A stretch of 64,000 nt of DNA from Candidatus Ferrigenium altingense (GTDB lineage Bacteria; Pseudomonadota; Gammaproteobacteria; Burkholderiales; Gallionellaceae): contig JAHRYS010000004.1 in NCBI GenBank assembly GCA_020621985.1, positions 62,001-126,000 of the forward strand. Reading direction: 5' to 3'. Position 1 is the stretch's first letter, and every line of letters starts with the position of its first letter. The position numbers and the translations under genes are program-made. Shown one piece after another: positions 7,271 to 45,510 of this stretch. The notes beneath the pieces were generated by a model, which saw only the letters and a list, made by a program, of their open reading frames with translations, was not told the DNA's origin and made no database searches.

Positions 7271-7696
7271 TCAGTTATTTTTGGCGCCCTGTTTGACCCA
7301 CTTCCTCAGAATCAGGATGTATTGGCGATCCAGCGTGCCGGCCGCATTCAAACCCATGGGCATCTTCAACCCCCTGTTGGTGCCGGCAAGCAGTTTGGTG
7401 AACGTGCTGGCATCGCTATTGCCGGGGATGACGACGGGGCCGAACTTGGTGCCCTTCATCAGCCCCTCGTAGGACGTTAAATCCAGGCCGCTTTTGGCAT
7501 GCCCTTTACCGCCCGGGGAATGGCAGCTCACGCAATAGTCATGCAGGATGGGCTGCACGTCTTCCCTGAAACTCACTTCCTCTCGTTTCAAGACCTTGAT
7601 GGCATCATGCGCCGGCGCCAGCGCCATATCCTCGGCCGGCGCGTTGAAGGAAAGCGCTGCCAACACGACTGCACCCAGCAACATTCTAGTTTTCAT
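7271..7696 (-). CDS. Small periplasmic c-type cytochrome (planctomycete-type cytochrome C domain)
   Basis: A 141-residue protein with a signal peptide (1–21) and a single heme motif CVSCH at 55–59, preceded by the phrase SFREDVQPILHDYC that is typical of the so-called planctomycete-type cytochrome C domain. A likely axial methionine is in GLKMPMG. It sits upstream of petABC but 198 bp separate them, so it is probably a separate transcript. It is preceded by a strong ribosome site (AAGGGGG) and, 33 bp upstream, by a tiny membrane-peptide gene in the same direction. Electron-transfer role is inferred; the partner is unknown. Confidence 0.85.
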   Translation of the reverse strand: MKTRMLLGAVVLAALSFNAPAEDMALAPAHDAIKVLKREEVSFREDVQPILHDYCVSCHSPGGKGHAKSGLDLTSYEGLMKGTKFGPVVIPGNSDASTFTKLLAGTNRGLKMPMGLNAAGTLDRQYILILRKWVKQGAKNN

Positions 7697-7729
7697 ATCA
7701 CCCCCTTGGAAAACGCATTGTGTTCAAAC

Positions 7730-7807
7730 TTAAACCAAGTTCAAAACCAGAATGAGATAACCTACGCATGCTGCGATCAAAGCAAAAGCAAAATTATGTG
7801 TTGTCAT
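7730..7807 (-). CDS. Putative 25-residue single-span membrane peptide
   Basis: A very short frame: ATG at 7807, TAA at 7730, 25 residues. The start is preceded by an excellent ribosome site, AAGGAG with 7-nt spacing. The product is MTTHNFAF followed by an uninterrupted hydrophobic stretch (ALIAACVGYLILVLNLV), enough for one membrane span. It lies 33 bp upstream of the c-type cytochrome on the same strand, so the two probably share a transcript. Small hydrophobic peptides of this kind occur as accessory subunits of respiratory enzymes; that role is only inference. It could also be a leader peptide. Confidence 0.5.
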   Translation of the reverse strand: MTTHNFAFALIAACVGYLILVLNLV

Positions 7808-8176: not shown

Positions 8177-10756
<2,580 letters not shown>

Positions 10757-32931: not shown

Positions 32932-33177
32932 TCAGCTTGCCGTCGAACAGGAGCCGCCGCCACAGCAGCCCGAGCTGGCGGGTTCGGGCTTGGGCGGATT
33001 CTTGAAGTCGGTGGCGTAATAGCCGCTGCCCTTCAACTGAAAACCGGCGGCGGTCAATTGTTTGACGAAAGTATCCTTGCCGCATTCCGGGCAAGTGGTG
33101 AGCGGCGCATCGCTCATTTTCTGCAACACGTCTTTTTGCAGGCCGCAACTGGAACAACCGTAAGCATAAATAGGCAT
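32932..33177 (-). CDS. FmdB-family zinc-ribbon protein
   Basis: An 81-residue protein with the FmdB zinc ribbon: MPIYAYGCSSCG supplies the first cysteine pair and CPECG the second. The tail is Gly/Cys/Ser-rich (SSGCCGGGSC), also common in the family. It was named from a putative regulator in formamidase clusters; the real role is unknown. It is first gene of the operon leading into aspS, and its ribosome site AGGAGG lies 7 nt upstream of the ATG. Confidence 0.92.
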   Translation of the reverse strand: MPIYAYGCSSCGLQKDVLQKMSDAPLTTCPECGKDTFVKQLTAAGFQLKGSGYYATDFKNPPKPEPASSGCCGGGSCSTAS

Positions 33178-33322
33178 GACATCCTCCTATCGGGTAATTT
33201 ACAAAGGCGCGCATTATACCCGAGCGAAGGGCGGAAGCGCAGCCCGTGGCGATGCTTTTGCCGTGTTTTAGGGGTATATGGTGTGAATCCGCCCGGCATA
33301 AAGTTCGTATATCCGTTGAGTC

Positions 33323-33532
33323 TTATAACGGCGACAAAAACACGCTCTCGCGCAATTTCTTCAACTGGTCGCGCAATTCCGCCGCCTTATCAAACTCCAG
33401 GTTTTTCGCGGCCCGCAGCATGTCTTTTTCCAGCCGTTTGATCTTTTTCGCTACATCCTTTTCGCCCATCGCCCGGTATTTTGCCTCGTCTGGGCCGCTT
33501 GCAGTTGCGCCCCGCAAAATTCCGCGTAGCAC
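33323..33532 (-). pseudogene. Truncated second copy of the uvrB 3' end (UVR domain)
   Basis: A 69-codon frame whose last 52 residues align without gaps to the C-terminus of UvrB encoded at 40237: 41 of 52 are identical, and both end LSPL and a stop. Homology begins near KYRAMGEKD; the 17 residues before it do not match the local UvrB. The DNA is clearly diverged, so this is not a fresh duplication. It lies just beyond jetD, so the two uvrB ends bracket the Wadjet genes. It is probably a relic left by integration of the cassette at the uvrB terminus, or the end of a former uvrB allele. Expression as a free UVR peptide is possible but unsupported. Confidence 0.8.
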
Positions 33533-33550
33533 TATACGCCCCGCAAAATT
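33508..33550. repeat. 14-bp direct repeat at the island edge
   Basis: CGCCCCGCAAAATT occurs at 33508–33521 and again at 33537–33550. The pair sits exactly between the uvrB fragment and the jetD stop, where homology to uvrB breaks down. It may be a junction scar; no third copy was seen at the uvrB/jetA side. Confidence 0.6.
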
Positions 33551-33569
33551 TTCCCAAAAGAAGGTGATG

Positions 33570-34763
33570 TCATTTCAATCCAGCTCTCGCCAGTTCGGCC
33601 TTTATCCATGCGAAGCCGATGCGTTCCTGTTCCAAGCGCAGCGATGGCGCAATACGGTCAAATCGCAAATCATCGTACAGCGCCGATTCCTCGGCATTCA
33701 ACCGCTCCAATTGCCGGGAAGCCGGGCGATCTTCGTTTCCCCAGAACATCCGGTGCTCCAGTAATGTGGCGCGATCCATCACCAACGACCGCGCCGAGGG
33801 AAATTGGCTCCTGAATTGATCCAGAATCGCAAAGCCATCAGTATCGATGTCGCCCCAGTAAAAAATCTCTTTTTGCCGCAGCCAGTCGGCTTGAGAAAGG
33901 TGTTCAAAGCCGTAGCCTCCGCCGAACAATATCAGGCCATCCGCCACATCCGGAAAACTCAGGAAATTGATTTCGTTTTCTGTAACGAACACCCGCTTGA
34001 TGGGCAGCGCCATCTGTACAAATACTTCACTCGTGACTGCGATGTCGGACAATCCGTGCAGGGATAGCTTCCTGTCCAGGAAGCGAAAGCGCACCTGTAG
34101 CGGTTTGCGCTTGAAACCATAGCGTTGCTCAAAGTTTTTTGCGCCGGAATACCGTTCATCTATTCTTTCCGGGAGAAGCACCCTGTCCAGCAAATCACCC
34201 AGCAGGCCGCGATGTTGCTCGATGAATTTGGTATCTACGCCCGATGCATCAATCTGGCGCAAATAAATGTTAGCTCCCGGATGGCGCACAACCCAATCCA
34301 GCACGGCCAGCAATCTCGGCCAATTCTCGGCCTGATCGAGAACTTTCAGCGGATACTGCCGCATCCATGGAACAAGCGCTGGGAAAGCATCAGCGACGGT
34401 TGCTGTCAGTTCGCGGAATCTGTCTGCATCGGATTGCGTTCCGATCAGACCCAATCCATCTTTTTCGCTTTCGACAATCGCTGCAACGGGTATGCGGTTG
34501 CGCCCCAGTTGCCGGTGCGCAAACTCCTGCCATTCCAAACGGCACCCGCTGCCCGCCTGCTCCTTGTCCATTGCGCTCAATGCCGCGATCCATAGCCGCG
34601 CAGCTTCGAACTGTTCCGCCAATGCCTTACTGTCCGGCCTTTTCAGTGGAATCCGCAACGGAAATACCGCTTCCTCCCCCTGCATCGCAGCGAGTATGCG
34701 TCCATTGTCCCATTCGCGCTGGATGCGCTTGCGAATATCCTCCGGCGTGGTCCAATCATTCAT
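33570..34763 (-). CDS. jetD: Wadjet defence protein JetD (Toprim nuclease)
   Basis: A 397-residue protein with an N-terminal DUF3322-like part and a C-terminal DUF2220/topoisomerase VI-like Toprim domain. The metal-binding residues are visible: Glu in VFVTENEINFLSFP and the DxD pair in YWGDIDTDGFAIL. In characterised Wadjet systems JetD is the nuclease that cuts small circular DNA after the JetABC motor has extruded a full loop. The start overlaps the jetC stop (ATGA at 34760–34763). It is last gene of jetABCD; the uvrB fragment follows 37 bp later. Confidence 0.9.
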   Translation of the reverse strand: MNDWTTPEDIRKRIQREWDNGRILAAMQGEEAVFPLRIPLKRPDSKALAEQFEAARLWIAALSAMDKEQAGSGCRLEWQEFAHRQLGRNRIPVAAIVESEKDGLGLIGTQSDADRFRELTATVADAFPALVPWMRQYPLKVLDQAENWPRLLAVLDWVVRHPGANIYLRQIDASGVDTKFIEQHRGLLGDLLDRVLLPERIDERYSGAKNFEQRYGFKRKPLQVRFRFLDRKLSLHGLSDIAVTSEVFVQMALPIKRVFVTENEINFLSFPDVADGLILFGGGYGFEHLSQADWLRQKEIFYWGDIDTDGFAILDQFRSQFPSARSLVMDRATLLEHRMFWGNEDRPASRQLERLNAEESALYDDLRFDRIAPSLRLEQERIGFAWIKAELARAGLK

Positions 34764-37700
34764 ACCCGCCTCGCGTCCCGTTCGGCGCGGTATTCGGCGA
34801 TGGTGAGATTGCGCAAACGCGAATCGCGCCCCTCATCGTTGTGGACGAAGCCGACACTGGCAACGAAGGGCTCGATGATGTGTATTTTTTGCAGCGGGGT
34901 AACAATCAACAATTGCAGGTTGAGCCGCTTGAACAGCTCCAGCCCGAAGCGCGCCGATTCATCCGAACCGCGACCGAAAGCCTCGTCTATCACGACGAAA
35001 CGGAAAGTGCGCGAACGCACGACACCCCATTCCAGACCGAACTGATAAGCCAAGCTGGCAGCCAGCACGGTGTAAGCCAGTTTCTCTTTTTGCCCGCCGG
35101 ACTTGCCGCCCGAATCGGTATAGTGCTCGTGTTCCGTATTGTCCTCGCGCCAACGCTCGGAAGCCGAAAACACGAACCATTGCCGCACATCGCTGACCTT
35201 GCGCGTCCAGCGCCGGTCGGGTTCTGTCTGGCCCTCTCTGCCGCGAAATCGCTCGATGATCATTTTCACTTGCAGGAATTTTGCTTCGGAATACTGCTCG
35301 TCGTCGGAACCGGTCAAGGCCCCTTCCGTGCAGGCGCGCAATTCCTGTTTGAAGTCGCGTATCTCCACATCGGGGTTGTCCTGCATTTCCAGCAGAATGA
35401 ACCGTCCGGGGTTGTAGTCGATCTGCTCCAGCGAACCGTTAATACGCTCGACCCGTTCGCGGATGGTTTGCTGCTCACGCGCCAATTGCGACTGGAATCC
35501 GGCCACTTCGCGGATGGTGTTCTCGTTGAGCAATTCCTTGAAGCGTGCCTCGAAACGCGGCAAATCGTCTGCCTGCAATTGTCCCAGCATGGAGCGGTAC
35601 TCGTCTGCCGCATCCACGCTGGCATCTGCCTCTTTCGTCTCGAGCGGATAGGCGTTGCGGTACTCCTGCATCGCCTTGACGATCTTCTCCTGCAATCGCT
35701 TGATCTTGCCATCTTCTGCATCAATCCTCGCCTGAAGCCAGTCGCGCATGTCGCGCTCGCGGTTGTCGCAGGATTCGACGGTTAAAGTATGCTCGCCTAA
35801 TGCTTCCACGCGCAATGCGCCAAGCTGGGCAAAGAGGCTTTCCCGTTGCGCCTGATCGAATGCTTCGACAATAGCCAAGCTCTCGGTTAGCAGTAAATTC
35901 GCCTGTTCCAGCTTCTCTTCATTCTTGGCTGCCTCCCTATTGCGCTCGTCTAGGGTGCTTTCGGTATGCTTGAGTTTGGCTTCAGCATCCTTGAGTTGCC
36001 CTGCCAATGTTTGCAGCAAATCCGATGCGGCCTCAAGTGCGCGCTTCTCCTCTTCCAGTTCCGAAATGGCGACCGCAAGCGGCTGCCAGTCGAGGTCGTT
36101 GAAGTTGCCGTATTCGCCGATCTTGCTCAAAGCATCCTGCCGCTCGCGCAGCACCTCTTGTTCCTGCCTTGTTTTCTCAATCTGACCGACAATGGTTTGC
36201 TTGCGCTGTTCCAGCAGATGAGCCTGCTTCTCCAGCACGGCGATCTTGCCTTCGTTGCTCCAGCCCAGGACGTAATGGCTGCGGTCGTCCAGCCTGCGGC
36301 GGTCGTCCTTTTCATGCCGCTCGCCTCCGCCCTTGGTTTGCCCCGCTTGGGTGATGGCCTGCCGTTCGCGGCGGAATTGCTCCATCGAAACACAGCAGGC
36401 GTAATCGAAACGCCGGGAGAGTTCGTTTTCGAGCCACGCATAGAAAGGGGAATCTGGCTTAACGGAAAGTTTGCGCACCAGCGAGTCGGCATGCAAGCTG
36501 TGGCGATCTGGACTTGCCGCTTCGCGTACCCTGAAATAGACCATGCGCGCCCCCAAGTGGGTCTTATCAACCCACGCAGCGACATCGGAATAATGCCGTT
36601 CGGGAACCAATAAGGACACGCCAAAGCCGTGCAATACACGCTCGGCAGCGCCTTCCCATGCCGCCTCGTCCGCGCGCACCTGAATTAACTCTCCGGCGAA
36701 AGGCATGGTTTCTTCCGAGACATTCAAAGCCGAACACAGTACACGGCGGATGGCGATTTGTGTTTCCGGGATGTTGCTGCGCCGCTGCCTGAGCGACGCG
36801 AGTTCGCCCGCTATCGCGTCGTGCTCCTGTTTGAGCGCGCGCAGGTTGACGCCCGCCTCGGTCTGCCGGTTCTGCAATTCCGCTTCCTTCGCATCGCAGC
36901 CCTCGCGCAGTTCGGCAAGCAGTTTGCGGTTGGCGAAAAAACCTTCCGCGTCGCTGGCGGGCGGCAAATCGAGTTGCCGCGCCAGTTCCGCATAACGCTC
37001 CGATCGCGCCAGCTTGTTGGTTTTTTCCTGTTGCTTGGCCCCGATGTCGGCGGCGATGCGCTCGATGCGGTCGCCGCCATTGGCCCTGATTGCATCCTGT
37101 ATGCTTTCACGCTCTTTTTGTTGCGCATTGCGCATCTCGGATAGAGCCGCGATCTTTCCCGCAAACTGCTCCGCTTCGCTATTGAGGTTGCTTATCCGCT
37201 TTTCGAGCAACCCAGTTTTCAGCGACGCGAAATAAGGCTTCAGCGCTTCACGGCAAACGCGCCAATCGTCAACTTGCGTGATCAGCCCGGCAAAGCGCCC
37301 GCAATCCTCCACCAAGGGTGCTAAGCGCGCGACCTGATCCTTGGCCTTGAGCACGGCTTCGTGCGCGCGGTTGAGGTCGTCGAAATGATGGATCAGCGCC
37401 GCGATGCGGGCTTCCACATCGAAAGCTTCCAGCATGTGTTCGCGCACGAAATCGGTGAGGTTGCCCACCGATTTCATCGACACCGTTTGATGGAACAATT
37501 CGAGTGCCTGCTCGTTTTCGATGCCGAAGCGGCGGCGGAAAGCGGCCGCATAGGGCGGGAAACTGTCGAACAATTCCACACCGATTGATGCGCGCAGGCG
37601 TTTCCTCAAATTGTTGATGTCCGCCCCGAACCCGGCGAAATCCGCCGCGATGGACAGCTCGCGGTCGGCCACCAGATAAAACCGCGCGGGCTGCCCCTGC

Positions 37701-38161
37701 AATTCCTTGTTCCAGAACACTTGCGCCAGCGTGACATCCAGCCCGTAGCCTTCGTTGCGGAACACCCCGAGGATCACCGAATAGCTGTTGTGGTCGCGCA
37801 AGGCGACCGGCTTGGCCGACAGCCCGGCTTCGCCGCGCTCGGACTTGTAGTAACCCAGCACGTAGGAGCGCAGCGTCCGCTCCCTGGCTTCCGCACCTGC
37901 GGCCTTGTTATAGGCGATGCGCTGAGCTGGCACCAGCAAAGTTGTGACCGCATCCACCAGCGTGGATTTCCCGGAACCGATGTCGCCCGTCAGCAGCGAG
38001 TTATCGCCGCCCGCCTGCAACGACCAAACCTTGCCATCGAACGTGCCCCAGTTGTAAACCTCTAGGCGGCGCAGCCGGAAACCCGCGCGTTCTTCCAGCG
38101 CGGGGAAATCATCCTCAACGGGAATGCGCGTTTGATTATCCGCAGGCTGCGCATCACTCAT
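34760..38161 (-). CDS. jetC: Wadjet defence protein JetC (SMC/MukB-like ATPase)
   Basis: A 1133-residue SMC-like motor. The head begins RRLEVYNWGTFDG with Walker A GDIGSGKST at 59–67. Long coiled coils occupy about 280–450 and 660–930 with a hinge-like middle part. The C-terminal head has the signature SGGKSGGQKEKLAYTV and Walker B FRFVVIDEAFGRG. JetC is the loop-extruding ATPase of Wadjet, related to MukB. The start at 38161 overlaps the jetB stop (ATGA); an upstream extension would lie inside jetB. It appears complete, with no frameshift. Confidence 0.92.
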   Translation of the reverse strand: MSDAQPADNQTRIPVEDDFPALEERAGFRLRRLEVYNWGTFDGKVWSLQAGGDNSLLTGDIGSGKSTLVDAVTTLLVPAQRIAYNKAAGAEARERTLRSYVLGYYKSERGEAGLSAKPVALRDHNSYSVILGVFRNEGYGLDVTLAQVFWNKELQGQPARFYLVADRELSIAADFAGFGADINNLRKRLRASIGVELFDSFPPYAAAFRRRFGIENEQALELFHQTVSMKSVGNLTDFVREHMLEAFDVEARIAALIHHFDDLNRAHEAVLKAKDQVARLAPLVEDCGRFAGLITQVDDWRVCREALKPYFASLKTGLLEKRISNLNSEAEQFAGKIAALSEMRNAQQKERESIQDAIRANGGDRIERIAADIGAKQQEKTNKLARSERYAELARQLDLPPASDAEGFFANRKLLAELREGCDAKEAELQNRQTEAGVNLRALKQEHDAIAGELASLRQRRSNIPETQIAIRRVLCSALNVSEETMPFAGELIQVRADEAAWEGAAERVLHGFGVSLLVPERHYSDVAAWVDKTHLGARMVYFRVREAASPDRHSLHADSLVRKLSVKPDSPFYAWLENELSRRFDYACCVSMEQFRRERQAITQAGQTKGGGERHEKDDRRRLDDRSHYVLGWSNEGKIAVLEKQAHLLEQRKQTIVGQIEKTRQEQEVLRERQDALSKIGEYGNFNDLDWQPLAVAISELEEEKRALEAASDLLQTLAGQLKDAEAKLKHTESTLDERNREAAKNEEKLEQANLLLTESLAIVEAFDQAQRESLFAQLGALRVEALGEHTLTVESCDNRERDMRDWLQARIDAEDGKIKRLQEKIVKAMQEYRNAYPLETKEADASVDAADEYRSMLGQLQADDLPRFEARFKELLNENTIREVAGFQSQLAREQQTIRERVERINGSLEQIDYNPGRFILLEMQDNPDVEIRDFKQELRACTEGALTGSDDEQYSEAKFLQVKMIIERFRGREGQTEPDRRWTRKVSDVRQWFVFSASERWREDNTEHEHYTDSGGKSGGQKEKLAYTVLAASLAYQFGLEWGVVRSRTFRFVVIDEAFGRGSDESARFGLELFKRLNLQLLIVTPLQKIHIIEPFVASVGFVHNDEGRDSRLRNLTIAEYRAERDARRV

Positions 38162-38757
38162 ACCTGCTCTCCTTTGCCCAGCGCATGGGTGCGATATGCC
38201 GCCAGACGCAGTTCGAAGTCTGCCAGCCATTGCGCATCCACAAATGCTTTCAGGATGCGGCGCACTTCGATGTGGTTCTCCTGCCCGCTCAGCCGTCGCA
38301 CAAAACCCAGCTCGACGATTTTGTTCAGGTGCGTATCCACCTGATCCACGATGCGCGCCTCATTGGTGCCTGCGGGCAAAAACAGCCGGATCAGTTCGAC
38401 GACTTCATCGCGGGAAAGAATCAAGCGTACATCGCCGCCGCCCGCATCGGACTCGGCCAGCTTCCTGCGCAGCAGCGCCAGCAACAGGCTGACCGGAAAC
38501 GAAAGCTGCCTTCTCGTCACCAGGCGCGGCAATTCGGTTTCGCCTTCGGATACCGGGCGGTTCCGCAGCCATGCATAGCCCTCCGCCTCATCCAACAACA
38601 GTTCGAGTCCCAGTGCGGCGACGTAATCGCGCACCCTGACCTGCAAGTTCAGCAATGCCTGCCAAATCTCCCCATCGGTATCCCGGTAGACGATGCCTTT
38701 CACCAATGCGATCAGCACGCGAGAAAGCGCTTGCCCGTGTATGTTCGGCTCATCCAT
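38158..38757 (-). CDS. jetB: Wadjet defence protein JetB (DUF4194, kite subunit)
   Basis: A 199-residue DUF4194 protein rich in winged-helix-like segments (for example VTRRQLSFPVSLLLALLRRKL and LNKIVELGFVRRL). It corresponds to MukE in the MukBEF-like Wadjet motor and bridges the JetC heads with JetA. It starts 3 nt after the jetA stop and overlaps jetC by 4 nt, so its expression is coupled to both. Length fits the family. Confidence 0.88.
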   Translation of the reverse strand: MDEPNIHGQALSRVLIALVKGIVYRDTDGEIWQALLNLQVRVRDYVAALGLELLLDEAEGYAWLRNRPVSEGETELPRLVTRRQLSFPVSLLLALLRRKLAESDAGGGDVRLILSRDEVVELIRLFLPAGTNEARIVDQVDTHLNKIVELGFVRRLSGQENHIEVRRILKAFVDAQWLADFELRLAAYRTHALGKGEQV

Positions 38758-38760
38758 TTT

Positions 38761-40203
38761 TCACCTGTTGAAAATAACGCGCGGCAAGCTGGCGCTGCGG
38801 GCGATACCCAACGCATCATGCCATCGCACACTGTCGCAATGCGTTTCGTCGAACAGCGCCTTGCTGTCGTCACCTGCCAAAGACAAATACGCGACCAGTT
38901 CCGCCAGCCCCTGTTCCAGCGGATGTTCATCCAGCAATTCGGCCAGCGTGATCTGCTCTCGCACCTGCAAGGCTTGGCGCAGATAAGCGGCAAGGCGCGC
39001 TTTGTCCAATACGACCTGGTCGAACAACGCATCGGCAACCACGTTGCCCTCGCCGCCATCAATCACCTGCGCGGTTATGCGCGGCTTGAGCGGCGGAGAA
39101 TACAGCGGGCGTTCCATAGGCAGTTCGATAGCGGGCGCAACGTCGTCAATTTCCATGAATATCCCTTCCGGCATATCCTCGCGCAAAGCCAGTGCATGAG
39201 CCTCGATCTCGTGCAGCACCTGCATGATGCGGCGGTTCTCCAGCCAGGCCTGGTCGTCCAGAAAGCGGCGCAACTGTTGCGAAAGCAAGGCCACGGTGCG
39301 CTGCGTGTACTCGCCTGCTTCCAGCCAGTCGTAATGAACCCGCTTCAACCGGGTGTCCGGTTCGAGGTCACGAACCGTTTTCAGTGCGAATACCGCATCG
39401 AGCAAAGCGCTCAACTCTTCCTGCCGTTCCAGTGACATAAGGAAATCCCAGAAAGCCCGGAAACTCTTGCCCTGATCGGAATCGGCAATCGCATCGCGCT
39501 CGCCGAAAATCGATTCCAGTAACTCGCCTTTAGCGCCGTCCCATAGTGCAATGCGCTCGCGGGTGCTGCGGTCCAGCATACGAAAATTCTGTTCGACTTC
39601 GCGGAAATCAGATAACAATTCCCGCGCCGTAGCAGCTACTTGTTGGAAACGATCTTTCAGCTCCGTATCGTCGAGCACGGCAATCTGGCCGTTCCGGATA
39701 CGCACGATCTCGCTATCAATTTCCGCCTTGCGTTTCTCCAGTTCGCGGATGCGCACTTCAGGATCGGTCTCGCTGCCTTCCACCATTTGCCGGAGCAAGT
39801 CGAACACCGTCATCAGGCGCGATTCGGTGCCCACGAAAGCGCGCTGCGTAAGGCTTTCCAGCCAGGCGATGGCTTTTTCGGTGGCCGGGGTCAGATCGAA
39901 ATGCGCCTCGTCCGACCCCGGCGGGTAATACTTGCGCAACCAACCGCGCGAATCCTGCGTCCAGTCTTCGAGATAGGCTGCCGCTGATTTGGGGAAGGCA
40001 TTTTCTCCCAGTGATTCGCGTAAATGGAACAATTCGTCTTCCAGCTTCGAAACAAGCTCCGGTTTCGCCATTGCGCGTACATTGGGTAATACAAACACCC
40101 GGTGCAGGAAGCTCGCCACCAATGGCGCATAGTCGGCCAATAACAATCGCCATGCGGGATGGTTGCGGCGCAGCAATTCGAGAGTGGCGTAATTAAGATT
40201 CAT
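38761..40203 (-). CDS. jetA: Wadjet defence protein JetA (DUF3375, kleisin-like)
   Basis: A 480-residue DUF3375 protein, the MukF/kleisin-like subunit of Wadjet. It is largely helical, with a coiled segment around 145–230 (RIRELEKRKAEIDSEIVRIR). The start at 40203 (MNLNYATLELL) fits the family opening; an ATG nine codons earlier (40230) is possible but unlike the family. Only 33 bp separate it from the uvrB stop, so it may be read through from uvrB. It is first gene of jetA–jetB–jetC–jetD. Confidence 0.88.
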   Translation of the reverse strand: MNLNYATLELLRRNHPAWRLLLADYAPLVASFLHRVFVLPNVRAMAKPELVSKLEDELFHLRESLGENAFPKSAAAYLEDWTQDSRGWLRKYYPPGSDEAHFDLTPATEKAIAWLESLTQRAFVGTESRLMTVFDLLRQMVEGSETDPEVRIRELEKRKAEIDSEIVRIRNGQIAVLDDTELKDRFQQVAATARELLSDFREVEQNFRMLDRSTRERIALWDGAKGELLESIFGERDAIADSDQGKSFRAFWDFLMSLERQEELSALLDAVFALKTVRDLEPDTRLKRVHYDWLEAGEYTQRTVALLSQQLRRFLDDQAWLENRRIMQVLHEIEAHALALREDMPEGIFMEIDDVAPAIELPMERPLYSPPLKPRITAQVIDGGEGNVVADALFDQVVLDKARLAAYLRQALQVREQITLAELLDEHPLEQGLAELVAYLSLAGDDSKALFDETHCDSVRWHDALGIARSASLPRVIFNR

Positions 40204-40236
40204 GACGTTCCATTGTACCGAATACGCCAAGAGCCA

Positions 40237-42273
<2,037 letters not shown>

Positions 42274-42960
42274 TTTACCGGCAAACTCAGGTCATTGTTC
42301 CCATTGCTGACATTAAGTAGACTGGAAGCATGACCAAAACATTGCCGCCCCAAGATTTTAGCGAAGAAGCCTTTTTCTCAGCTTACAAGCAGATCAGGAA
42401 TCTGTTTCGCAGTTATTCCCCGTCTTCTATTGTTGATTTCGCCTTAAATTATCTAAAGACACCAACCTCAAGTCCGATCGATGACTTGCAGAAACATCCT
42501 TGGTTGGTTTTTCTCCTGCTAAAGTGGGTCTTGCTTGACGAGCAGTTTTATCATCGTGACAAGCGCAATATAACAAAACAAGAATTCCAGATACTTCTAG
42601 GAAAAATGCATGGCTTAGGATCAAGATCAGTAGCACGAATGCCAAGCAAGTATATGCACCACCGTTTATGGTTTCGAAACATCTCTTACCAACAATTTCT
42701 CTATCAAGCAGATTTCAACGGCTCGGCATTTGCCAGGCAGAGTTTAATATTCGATAGTCTCTCCCCCAATCACCAATTTAGGCTTGAATTCCAGAGAGCC
42801 ACAAATATTCCTCTTGCCGATTTTTTTGAATTGTCAGCCATGCTATTGGCTCGCGTCATAGAGGACAGCAATTCACCAATTACCATATCTTGGTTTGACC
42901 TTGCCCCCGAAAAACGTATTTCTTAACTTATGGTAGATTTCAAGTTAAGGAGACGTAAAA

Positions 42961-43260
42961 ATGACGGCAGAAAAAAGCAAGAGAGCGGCATACACACTGG
43001 AGTACAAGCTGGAGGCGGTGCGATTGGTTCAGGGCGGCCAGGCATGTTTGATGACAGCCAAAGTGCTGGGTATTCCGAAGCAGACATTGGAGAATTGGGT
43101 CAGGCAGGCGGCAAAAGGGAAGCTGGCCGGTGCAGGTGCCAAGCCGGTGAGCGCAGAGCAAATGGAGCTGGCGCGCTTGAGAGCAGAACTTGCGCGGGTC
43201 AAGATGGAGCGCGACATCCTAAAAAAAGCGACGGCGTACTTTGCGCGGGAGTCAGCGTGA
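42961..43260 (+). CDS. IS3-family transposase OrfA
   Basis: A 99-residue DNA-binding protein: helix-turn-helix of the transposase 8 type (TLEYKLEAVRLV, TAKVLGIPKQTLENWVRQ) followed by a leucine-zipper-like helix (MELARLRAELARVKMERDILKKA). It is preceded by AAGGAGACGTAAAA. The run of seven A at 43221–43227 (CCTAAAAAAAGCG) is the probable site of -1 frameshifting that fuses OrfA to OrfB into the active OrfAB transposase. The stop overlaps the OrfB GTG (GTGA at 43257–43260). Confidence 0.94.
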   Translation: MTAEKSKRAAYTLEYKLEAVRLVQGGQACLMTAKVLGIPKQTLENWVRQAAKGKLAGAGAKPVSAEQMELARLRAELARVKMERDILKKATAYFARESA

Positions 43261-44153
43261 AGTACGCCTGGATTGAGCGGCATAAAAATCGTTGGCCGAT
43301 CACCCTGCAATGCGAAGTGCTGAACGTCAGCGCGAGCGGATACTTTGAGTATCAGCGTCGCAAAGGTTCTGGACACCCCGCGACGCCTGGCAAGCGCATC
43401 AATGATGAAGCCCTGCTGGTTCACATCAAGGCAGCGCATGCCGCCAGCAAAGGCGAATACGGCTGGCCGCGAATCTGGCAAGAACTCCGTGCCAGTGGTG
43501 TGCGTGTCTGGAAAGAACGGGTTCGGCGGCTCATGAAGGAACACGGCATCAAGGCACGAGGAAAGCGTAAATTTGTTGTTACCACCGACAGCAAGCATAA
43601 CCTGCCGATCGCGCCGAACTTGCTCAATCGCAACTTCCAGCCTGATACGCCCGACTGTGTATGGACTAGCGACATCACCTATATCCAGACCGATGAAGGC
43701 TGGTTGTATCTGGCTATCGTCCTTGATCTGTACAGCCGTCAGGTAGTCGGCTGGAGCATGCAAGCCCACATGCAGACCCGCTTGGTGACGGATGCGCTCA
43801 GGATGGCATGGTTCAGGAGACGACCGGAGCCCGGGCTGATCTTCCACTCGGATCGGGGTAGTCAGTATTGCAGCCACACATTCCAGCAAACGCTGGTTGA
43901 ATACGGCATGCAAAGCTCAATGAGCCGCAAAGGGAACTGCTGGGACAACGCGCCAACGGAAAGCTTGTGGGGGTCATTGAAGGTGGGACGGTTGTACGGC
44001 ATGCGGTTTGAAACACGGCGCCAGGCGATGGACGAGGTGATTGACTGGCTGACGTACTACAACCACAGAAGGCTGCACTCGACACTGGGCTATATCAGTC
44101 CGATGCAGTTCGAGAAAAACTGGTTGGCGGCACAGTTGAAGGATGCCGCATAA
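43257..44153 (+). CDS. IS3-family transposase OrfB (DDE integrase domain)
   Basis: A 298-residue catalytic part. It has an N-terminal HTH_21 segment (EYGWPRIWQELRASG) and an rve integrase core with the DDE triad: Asp in VWTSDITYI, Asp in IFHSDRGSQY, Glu in NAPTESLWGSLK, followed by the IS3-typical YNHRRLHSTLGYISP. It is in -1 frame relative to orfA and is normally made as the OrfAB fusion; a GTG start at 43257 would allow independent OrfB. No disabling mutation is seen. Confidence 0.94.
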   Translation: MKYAWIERHKNRWPITLQCEVLNVSASGYFEYQRRKGSGHPATPGKRINDEALLVHIKAAHAASKGEYGWPRIWQELRASGVRVWKERVRRLMKEHGIKARGKRKFVVTTDSKHNLPIAPNLLNRNFQPDTPDCVWTSDITYIQTDEGWLYLAIVLDLYSRQVVGWSMQAHMQTRLVTDALRMAWFRRRPEPGLIFHSDRGSQYCSHTFQQTLVEYGMQSSMSRKGNCWDNAPTESLWGSLKVGRLYGMRFETRRQAMDEVIDWLTYYNHRRLHSTLGYISPMQFEKNWLAAQLKDAA

Positions 44154-45188
44154 TGAGCGTGTTAAGAGATACGGATTACAGGGGCAAGGTCAGTTTTCAC
44201 CAGTAGCGCATCGCTACGATGCATCCACCCTCCAAATTTTTCTTGATCTTCTATCGTCCGACCTAAGCTCCTTGCGCCAATATTTAATTGGAGAAGACGA
44301 TCCAAAAAAGAGAAAAGCTAGTGAGTTGTATGAAGAAACTCATTTCGTAAAATTTCCTTTCCTAAAAGACAACGGGATATATTACCTATGGCATCCCATG
44401 CTATTCAATAGAGGGCTGGAGTACTTTGTGTATGACACATTAAGGTCTCCCAACCCGAGTAACTTTATGAATAAGTTTGGTGACCTCTTTGAAACTTATG
44501 TTCATCGTTCTATCGAATCCATCGGACTTCCGTACTTGAGGGAAGAGCAACTTCAAGAGTTGCTAGCTGGATCAGGAAAGGCAACAGACTTTCTTATTAC
44601 CGAGGATGGAGCCAATGTTTTCGTGGACGCAAAGGGTGTTGAAGTCGCTTATCTTGGAAAAGTAAGCCATATCCCAGAAGTAATACTTGGCAAAGTAGAG
44701 ACTTCGGCCCTCAAGGGGATTGAGCAAGGATTCCATACAGCCAAGAGATTAGCAGCTCAGGGCTCACTCAATAAAACCTTCCAAGCCGCCAGCGAAAATT
44801 ACCTCTTGATTGTTACTCTTAAAGAGCTCTATTTAGGGAGTGGTCAGGATTTCTACGATATGGCCGCAAAAAATAAGATTGATGCACTTGTCGGACAGGG
44901 GAGCTCCCCGCCCATACCCCTAGAAAACGTTTACTTTATAACTGTTGATGATTTGGATCATTTCGCCAATTGCGTGAATAAAGGCGAGGTGCGATTCATT
45001 GACTTCATCAGAAAAGCTGTTAGAGAAGATCGTTCTAACACAACAAAGAAATTTCACTTTCGACAACATTTATCGGCAATTGGAAAAGATGCCGGGCGTC
45101 CAGAATATTTGGAGGAGGAAATTGAGAAAATATTTAGCCGTGTTGAACGGTTACTCTCTTCCTCCAGATAAAAAATTAACAAGTGCCC

Positions 45189-45510
45189 ACAGGGTCAGCA
45201 TCGCATTACTTTCCCACAACCCCGCACCCCTCAAGCAACAGCCAGCATCAAATGCCCGACAGGTTCAGAGGTCGGCTTCACCTTTATTTCGATGTCGTAG
45301 CCGAGCCGGTTCAGGCAGTCCATCAGCTTGCGCTCGGACAGGTTGGAGAAATCGCCGCGCATCATGTCGGATACTTTCGGCTGGGTGATCCCCATGCGTT
45401 TTGCCGCCTCCTGTTGAGTCAGTCCAAGGCGGCGCATGGCCTTTCCAGCCAACAGGGTCAGCATCGCATTACTTTCCCACAACCCCGCACCCCTCAAGCA
45501 ACAGCCAGCA
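45189..45510. repeat. 59-bp perfect direct repeat bracketing a truncated regulator gene
   Basis: The 59 bases at 45189–45247 recur exactly at 45452–45510, 263 bp apart. The left copy holds the 3' end and downstream flank of the XRE-type gene (minus strand); the right copy replaces what should be the 5' part of that gene. The arrangement points to a segmental duplication or recombination that cut off the N-terminus. Confidence 0.92.
45231..45464 (-). pseudogene. XRE-family HigA-like antitoxin/regulator, probably 5' truncated
   Basis: A 77-residue helix-turn-helix protein: GLTQQEAAKRMGITQPKVSDMMRG is the DNA-binding core, followed by RKLMDCLNRLGYDIEIKV, the tail seen in HigA/XRE antitoxins of RelE-type modules. 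Relatives normally carry about 15–30 more residues before the HTH. Here that part is lost in a 59-bp repeat copied from the gene's own 3' end. The start at 45464 has GGGAAAG upstream, so a shortened protein may still be made. No toxin gene is visible alongside. Confidence 0.65.

What the first reader, a model, noticed from the sequence alone, without database searches (positions are those of the whole stretch)
33323..40203. Complete Wadjet type I cassette inserted next to uvrB and bracketed by a second uvrB 3' end
jetA, jetB, jetC and jetD are intact, in the known order, with 4-nt overlaps or tiny gaps, directly after the uvrB stop codon. On the other side is a diverged, truncated copy of the uvrB C-terminus. 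This is what one expects if the cassette entered at the 3' end of uvrB carrying (or leaving behind) a replacement terminus, as many integrating elements do with conserved gene ends. No integrase is visible, so the route is unexplained, and uvrB as a docking site for a defence system would be notable.
Basis: partly seen in the sequence, partly recalled or inferred. Interest (0 to 1): 0.78.

Follow-up and report, generated by a model that had tools for sequence, protein, structure and literature searches.

The report
Wadjet cassette docked at uvrB's end
An intact four-gene anti-plasmid system sits between the DNA-repair gene uvrB and a second, foreign copy of uvrB's last stretch, which looks like the scar of a recombination event that slotted the system in without any integrase of its own; related bacteria carry similar uvrB scraps, some of them next to other candidate defence genes.

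Summary
An intact type I Wadjet operon (jetABCD) starts 33 nt after the uvrB stop, and beyond jetD lies a 54-codon in-frame uvrB C-terminus (78% identical), then native fmdB-DUF502-aspS. Three same-genus relatives (G067, G072, G081) show the empty site: one uvrB, then fmdB, no jet genes. The junctions look mosaic. Intact uvrB matches these relatives at 103 of 103 shared sites up to a 23-nt block in codons 664-671, then at 14 of 21; the fragment matches at 82 of 103 before the block, then 19 of 21, and runs into native intergenic DNA. One reciprocal crossover with a molecule carrying a foreign uvrB end plus jetABCD would leave this. Caveat: the uvrB tail varies across the genus. No integrase lies in the cassette, and none of the 80 jetA relatives kept from GTDB is flush with uvrB. 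Extra uvrB end pieces occur in 10 of 76 genus genomes by my count. In four other genomes such pieces bracket candidate defence or toxin-like genes, but other uvrB neighbours are mostly core genes. I favour integrase-free homologous recombination at a recombination-prone core gene; an integrase acting in trans is not excluded. Wadjet itself is ordinary; recurrent uvrB docking is the new part.

The parts
40237..42273 (-). uvrB, intact; native up to the block in codons 664-671, last ~8 codons (EAVLLSPL) non-native
40262..40284 (-). 23-nt block in which the identity of the two uvrB copies switches (inferred crossover region)
40204..40236 (-). 33-nt gap between uvrB stop and jetA start; no promoter-like or terminator-like site found in 40050-40450
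38761..40203 (-). jetA (DUF3375), 480 aa
   Evidence: PADLOC JetA1 1.7e-224; PF11855
38158..38757 (-). jetB (DUF4194, MukE-like), 199 aa
   Evidence: PADLOC JetB1 4.6e-88; PF13835
34760..38161 (-). jetC (MukB/SMC-like ATPase), 1133 aa; Walker A, SGG signature and Walker B-like motifs present
   Evidence: PADLOC JetC1 1649 bits; motif patterns
33570..34763 (-). jetD, 397 aa; candidate Toprim-type E and DxD residues present
   Evidence: PADLOC JetD1 1.2e-146; JetD_C
33511..33569 (-). spacer between jetD and fragment, with two direct copies of a 14-nt word 29 nt apart; origin unknown
33323..33510 (-). second uvrB 3' end: foreign body (about codons 618-663), then block (33348-33370), native-like tail and stop
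33178..33322 (-). native uvrB-fmdB intergenic region (85% to G072 over 139 nt; 94-96% to G067/G081 over 81-83 nt)
32932..33177 (-). fmdB-like zinc-ribbon gene, right-hand native flank

Best explanation
An ordinary type I Wadjet operon was added to the end of uvrB by one reciprocal crossover between the resident uvrB and an incoming molecule that carried a diverged uvrB 3' end directly joined to jetABCD. The crossover fell in a ~23-nt block (codons 664-671), so resident uvrB received the incoming last ~8 codons plus jetABCD, and the rest of the incoming uvrB piece was left behind jetD as the fragment. The most likely route is RecA-type homologous recombination of a circular or repeated molecule, or of linear DNA from a donor that already had the same bracketed arrangement, in a genus whose uvrB ends recombine repeatedly. 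Shown: intact operon, empty site in relatives, foreign fragment body with native DNA beyond it, non-native uvrB tail, no integrase in the cassette. Inferred: the single reciprocal event, the form of the incoming DNA, RecA rather than an integrase, read-through transcription from uvrB into jetA, and that the Wadjet works.
For: Empty sites G067, G072, G081. Counts at sites where these three agree: intact 103/103 before, 20/20 in, 14/21 after the block; fragment 82/103, 19/20, 19/21; Fisher for the intact copy before versus after p = 1.5e-6. Sliding windows show intact uvrB at 90-99% to G072 and G081, and the right flank at 82-98% to G072 and 92-98% to G067. The fragment differs from the intact copy at 16 synonymous and 12 non-synonymous codons of 54 with no stop: a once-functional foreign allele rather than a decayed native one; its best body match among the uvrB genes compared was 85% (G017). 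Genus pattern: extra uvrB 3' pieces in G087 (two), G074, G025, G013, G021 and G071, and 5' pieces in G083, G091, G074, G013 and G026. aspS 3' control: no piece over 40 nt except a second aspS-bearing contig in G011.
Against: The uvrB tail varies across the genus: of 22 pairs at 90% identity or more before the block, after-block identity runs from 0.59 to 1.0, and 15 of 47 other genomes drop by more than 0.15 from their nearest neighbour; one (L221, G012, 0.88 to 0.45) drops more than the window (0.97 to 0.59). So the replaced tail is weaker evidence than its p-value suggests. The fragment's own coding switch is not significant alone (p = 0.36). No donor with the fragment plus spacer was found in 158 family genomes. 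Wadjet cuts circular DNA (recalled), so a circular intermediate is awkward. The window's upstream flank of uvrB also differs from G072, so uvrB may have arrived with a larger block. Enrichment over the one control gene is modest (6/76 versus 0/76 p = 0.028; versus 1/76 p = 0.12).
Confidence: 0.57

Rival explanations
1. Site-specific integration: the uvrB 3' end is an attachment site, the incoming uvrB end was the attP, and a tyrosine recombinase acted in trans or has since been lost. The 7-nt stretch shared by both copies at the end of the block would be the overlap.
For: Integration at a gene's 3' end with a restored terminus is the classical layout; the switch maps to a short block; the genome holds 13 PF00589 matches.
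Against: No integrase-like ORF in the cassette and none of the 13 matches near uvrB; uvrB C-terminus had no match in phage records, one 43.5% plasmid match, viral contigs 44-45%; pieces elsewhere start at different codons and also come from the 5' end of uvrB.
Confidence: 0.2
2. Replacement: a larger incoming block holding its own uvrB plus jetABCD (and perhaps the accessory ORFs upstream of uvrB) displaced a divergent resident uvrB, joining at one end without homology; the fragment is the stump of the old resident gene.
For: The window's upstream flank also differs from G072; in G013, G074 and G083 a uvrB 5' piece remains and another uvrB start lies behind inserted genes; G102 has two full-length uvrB genes.
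Against: The fragment body is foreign to the close relatives while its right flank is native, and the intact gene is about as close to G072 as the neighbouring genes are.
Confidence: 0.17
3. Gene-order scrambling is simply high in this genus and uvrB scraps are by-products without any link to defence genes.
For: Downstream neighbours of uvrB are mostly varied core genes (named by eye); in G071 the genes between uvrB and a 52-nt remnant look like core metabolism (by eye); both flanks are poorly conserved (111 upstream and 39 downstream of 780 genome pairs share an ORF); a few repeats in other genes could be similar scars.
Against: Cargo bracketed by uvrB pieces in the window, G083 and G013 matches Wadjet or PADLOC candidates, and G074 holds a look-alike of the G013 gene.
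Confidence: 0.25
4. Assembly chimera.
For: The genome is an unnamed, incomplete assembly; no reads were available.
Against: 222-kb contig, 9 contigs in all, 0.04% contamination; a chimera would need two separate mis-joins at the same place in uvrB.
Confidence: 0.04

Closest known systems
Wadjet type I (JetABCD)
   Same: Four genes in order, tight operon, all four proteins hit type I models over nearly full length
   Different: Only the place is unusual: just behind uvrB, bracketed by a second uvrB end
Hotspots without mobility genes, with recombination at flanking core genes (Oliveira et al. 2017, PMC5635113; passages seen, some from the abstract)
   Same: Accessory cargo beside a core gene, no integrase, homologous recombination in flanking core genes as the proposed route
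   Different: Here the event leaves partial duplicates of the core gene itself, and one gene, uvrB, is hit repeatedly on both sides
E. coli defence-island hotspots (Hochhauser et al. 2023, PMC10121019; passages seen)
   Same: Defence systems at fixed core-gene positions, some with unclear mobilisation; Wadjet-carrying elements favour hotspot 37
   Different: uvrB has 0 occurrences in that main text; the unclear islands shown there typically carry integrase or recombinase genes
Islands that split a gene and restore its end (Islander, PMC4383910; start of abstract in a search listing)
   Same: Restored gene end at one side, displaced fragment at the other
   Different: Those are tRNA/tmRNA targets with tyrosine integrases; none here
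Homology-facilitated illegitimate recombination (PMC3240628; start of abstract in a search listing)
   Same: Foreign DNA joined to the chromosome through homology at one end
   Different: Here both junctions lie in uvrB homology

Membership tests
Wadjet type I | jetA, jetB, jetC, jetD in order, type I profiles | tested here: met
   PADLOC JetA1, JetB1, JetC1, JetD1; coordinates
Wadjet type I | ATPase motifs in JetC and Toprim acidic residues in JetD | tested here: met
   pattern match only; motifs and residue roles recalled
Wadjet type I | cuts or excludes small circular DNA | not testable with these tools
   needs an experiment
Integrase-driven genomic island | integrase within or beside the element | tested here: not met
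Integrase-driven genomic island | gene end restored on one side, fragment on the other, empty site in relatives | tested here: met
   the restored tail is moderate evidence
Integrase-driven genomic island | same crossover point in independent insertions | tested here: inconclusive
   the other 3' pieces were read but not mapped against empty sites
Homologous-recombination hotspot at a core gene | repeated events at the same core gene in relatives | tested here: met
   10 of 76 genus genomes with extra uvrB end pieces by my count
Homologous-recombination hotspot at a core gene | more pieces than at other core genes | tested here: inconclusive
   one control gene, aspS

The most novel reading that the evidence does not exclude
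In this Gallionella-type genus uvrB is a two-sided, integrase-free landing pad: defence cassettes travel attached to short pieces of uvrB's own ends and are swapped in by recombination within uvrB, so that a DNA-repair gene supplies both the homology and, by read-through, the transcription for the new defence genes.
Probability: 0.25. Interest if true: 0.7.

Novelty: new variant of a known kind. Interest (0 to 1): 0.45.

Why it matters
Many defence islands lack any mobility gene, and how they move is an open question. A locus with an intact cassette, an empty site in relatives and readable mosaic junctions lets the route be worked out from sequence, and a genus in which one core gene shows such scars repeatedly, at both ends, gives a natural series of events to compare.

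Tried and rejected
Searched for jetABCD next to uvrB elsewhere. jetC: 11 of 61 genus genomes including the window's own, one marginal (G063, E 7e-4); none shows uvrB in the fetched flanks. The closest jetA (86%, L091, Sideroxydans MAG) lies between a small acetyltransferase-like gene and a recQ-like gene (both by eye). Mobile carrier: jetA on 10 plasmid records, best 61%, 1 phage record at 27%, none confirmed in viral contigs.

I first took downstream variability of uvrB as a defence hotspot; listing the neighbours showed mostly core genes, so I withdrew that wider claim. The self-repeat survey of 53 loci, 0.94 Mb, also found repeats not involving uvrB; many are palindromic intergenic repeats, internal repeats or paralogous domains, but a few, e.g. 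in L248, could be similar scars of other genes, so uvrB is not proved unique. Dropped before counting: short motif-region matches (24-44 nt) in 11 genomes, G095 (contig end), G016 (its only uvrB match is a piece) and G069 (46 nt). Kept but weak: G025, G013 and G021 3' pieces (48-52 nt by blastn, E 2e-6 to 1e-4), G026 (52 nt) and G071 (52 nt, found only by searching its own locus, which was done for 49 loci). G102 and G109 (second long uvrB matches) are not counted as pieces. G083 (5% contamination) may hold mixed strains. The ungapped identity printed last (155 of 762) compared out-of-register strings and is worthless; one search gives 90%. On re-checking I corrected the block coordinates, the tail length (about 8 codons) and a claim that the window shows the largest tail drop in the genus (L221 is larger); I lowered the main confidence from 0.6 to 0.57 and raised the replacement rival from 0.15 to 0.17 for that reason.

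Literature searches run. None of the 10 listed of 12 papers holds uvrB; PMC7466150 mentions UvrB only as ICE cargo (passages).
Full report
What is there. On the minus strand uvrB (40237-42273) is followed after 33 nt by jetA, jetB, jetC and jetD, all open and tightly packed. All four hit PADLOC's type I Wadjet models over nearly their full length. Between jetD and fmdB is a second uvrB C-terminus: 54 in-frame codons, 42 identical to the intact protein (E 2e-19), 80% identical over 161 nt, preceded by about 20 nt of further homology after a 1-nt indel. No tRNA is in the window. No promoter-like or terminator-like site was found in 40050-40450, so uvrB and jetABCD may share transcription (inferred).

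Which organism. G064, listed as the same genus as the window genome, has a 79,369-base contig that equals in length the GTDB record titled Gallionella sp. in which the same jet locus lies, so the window is from a Gallionella-type bacterium (inferred).

Empty site. The DUF502 neighbour was found in 57 of 61 genus genomes searched; the best 30 places became loci, one of them the window's own. Among the 29 others, three (G067, G072, G081) have uvrB directly before fmdB-DUF502-aspS with no jet gene; these three also have no jetC match anywhere and one uvrB C-terminus each. In the other 26 no uvrB was seen in the roughly 1.1-1.3 kb held beyond fmdB (G026 has uvrB 2.2 kb away); the remaining 27 matching genomes were not fetched for this test.

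Mosaic junctions. Aligning the window's two uvrB ends with the three empty sites shows a switch at a 23-nt block (40262-40284 in the intact copy, 33348-33370 in the fragment; codons 664-671). At sites where the three relatives agree, the intact copy matches them at 103/103 sites before, 20/20 inside and 14/21 after the block; the fragment matches at 82/103, 19/20 and 19/21. For the intact copy, before versus after differs with p = 1.5e-6; for the fragment taken alone the coding part does not differ significantly, p = 0.36, so its native end rests mainly on the intergenic DNA that follows, which is 85% identical to G072 over 139 nt and 94-96% to G067 and G081 over 81-83 nt. The fragment body, at 74-77% to G072, G081 and G026 and at best 85% to any of 49 uvrB ends compared (G017), is far more diverged than that neighbouring non-coding DNA, and its differences from the intact copy are 16 synonymous and 12 non-synonymous codons without a stop, so it reads as a foreign allele and not as a decayed native end. 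The rest of uvrB is 90-99% to G072 and G081 and the right flank 82-98% to G072 and 92-98% to G067. Against this, the uvrB tail is variable across the genus: among 22 pairs at 90% or more before the block it runs from 0.59 to 1.0, and 15 of 47 other genomes drop by more than 0.15 from their nearest neighbour, one of them (L221, 0.88 to 0.45) by more than the window (0.97 to 0.59). The replaced tail is therefore a moderate, not a decisive, argument.

Reading. One reciprocal crossover with a molecule holding a foreign uvrB end joined to jetABCD predicts native then foreign on the left and foreign then native on the right; all four segments agree with that. A stump left by a one-sided replacement predicts a native fragment body, which is not seen, unless the former resident was itself a foreign allele. 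Which enzyme did it is open. None of the genome's 13 PF00589 matches lies near uvrB. The uvrB end had no match in 50,697 phage records, one match at 43.5% identity among 72,556 plasmid records, and four at 44-45% in viral contigs. A search of 158 family genomes with the fragment plus spacer found uvrB genes but no donor with the spacer.

A genus-wide habit of uvrB. In the genus (76 genomes) extra uvrB 3' ends came up in the window genome, G087 (two), G074, G025, G013 and G021, and in G071 on searching its own locus (52 nt, 5.3 kb downstream): 7 of 76 genomes, of which the G025, G013, G021 and G071 pieces are short (48-52 nt by blastn). Extra 5' ends, several with the uvrB promoter region, are in G083, G091, G074, G013 and G026: 5 of 76. 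Together that is 10 of 76 genomes. The same DNA search with the aspS 3' end gave no piece longer than 40 nt apart from a second aspS-bearing contig in G011. The contrast is modest (6/76 against 0/76, p = 0.028; against 1/76, p = 0.12) and rests on one control gene. At family level (158 genomes) extra uvrB C-termini were G000, G087 and G074 as pieces and G102 and G109 as second longer copies; for aspS only G011.

Cargo. In G083 genes matching PDC-M45A, B, C and HEC-03A, B lie between a 773-bp uvrB 5' piece and a second uvrB that runs off the contig. In G013 a gene matching PDC-S01 lies between a 70-nt 5' piece and a uvrB copy, and its stop overlaps that uvrB's start by 4 nt; that uvrB copy is itself truncated near codon 380, so here cargo lies between two incomplete uvrB copies. 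In G074 a look-alike of the G013 gene (by eye, not scanned), a HEPN-domain gene and a ParA-like gene lie between a 90-nt 5' piece and uvrB. In G087 the insert holds a PIN-domain gene (with an AbrB-like partner by eye) and a ZapE-like gene (by eye), and beyond the piece lie a PDC-S41 schlafen-type helicase and a NERD-UvrD gene. DNA right of the G087 piece is 84% identical over 673 nt to DNA right of the G071 remnant, while what lies between uvrB and the piece differs, which suggests serial events at the same gene end. PADLOC's PDC and HEC entries are candidates, not proven systems. In G071 the intervening genes look like core metabolism, and most uvrB neighbours in the genus look like core genes (by eye), so uvrB is better called recombination-prone than a dedicated defence island.

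Relation to known work. Wadjet type I is known; membership is met by profile and order, function untested. Hotspots that lack mobility genes and show homologous recombination in flanking core genes are described by Oliveira et al. (passages), and E. coli defence hotspots with unclear mobilisation by Hochhauser et al. (passages). In six literature searches (listings only, from an open-access library) I did not see uvrB named as such a docking gene, nor terminal pieces of one core gene bracketing cargo on both sides. I rate it a new variant of a known kind.

Noticed in passing
window 42330-45171: Upstream of uvrB and divergent from it, a 198-aa ORF and a 342-aa ORF flank an IS3-type transposase (named by eye) and may be one accessory gene or operon split by the insertion; neither ORF has a Pfam or PADLOC match.
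   Followed up: partly
window 45185-45247 and 45448-45510: 63-nt direct repeat, 98% identical, 263 nt apart, just beyond the 342-aa ORF.
   Followed up: no
window 33511-33569: Two direct copies of a 14-nt word, 29 nt apart, between jetD and the uvrB fragment, not seen elsewhere in the window with up to one mismatch.
   Followed up: partly
G000 C3:736234-738663 and 749459-751888: Two copies of a trio of adjacent integrase genes, reminiscent (recalled) of GInt-type or recombinase-in-trio elements.
   Followed up: no
L212 about 10105-10197 and L215 about 7664-7756: A similar decayed uvrB 3' piece beside a P-type ATPase gene (by eye) in G087 and G025, with different genes on the other side.
   Followed up: partly
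L288, L289 (G102): Two full-length uvrB genes on different contigs in one genome of another genus of the family.
   Followed up: no
L081 / L095 (G064) between jetA and jetB: About 3.2 kb of extra DNA splits jetA from jetB in a related Wadjet locus.
   Followed up: no
L262 3959-5143 (G013): The only long uvrB copy found in G013 is truncated near codon 380, so this genome shows no intact uvrB in the calls made.
   Followed up: no
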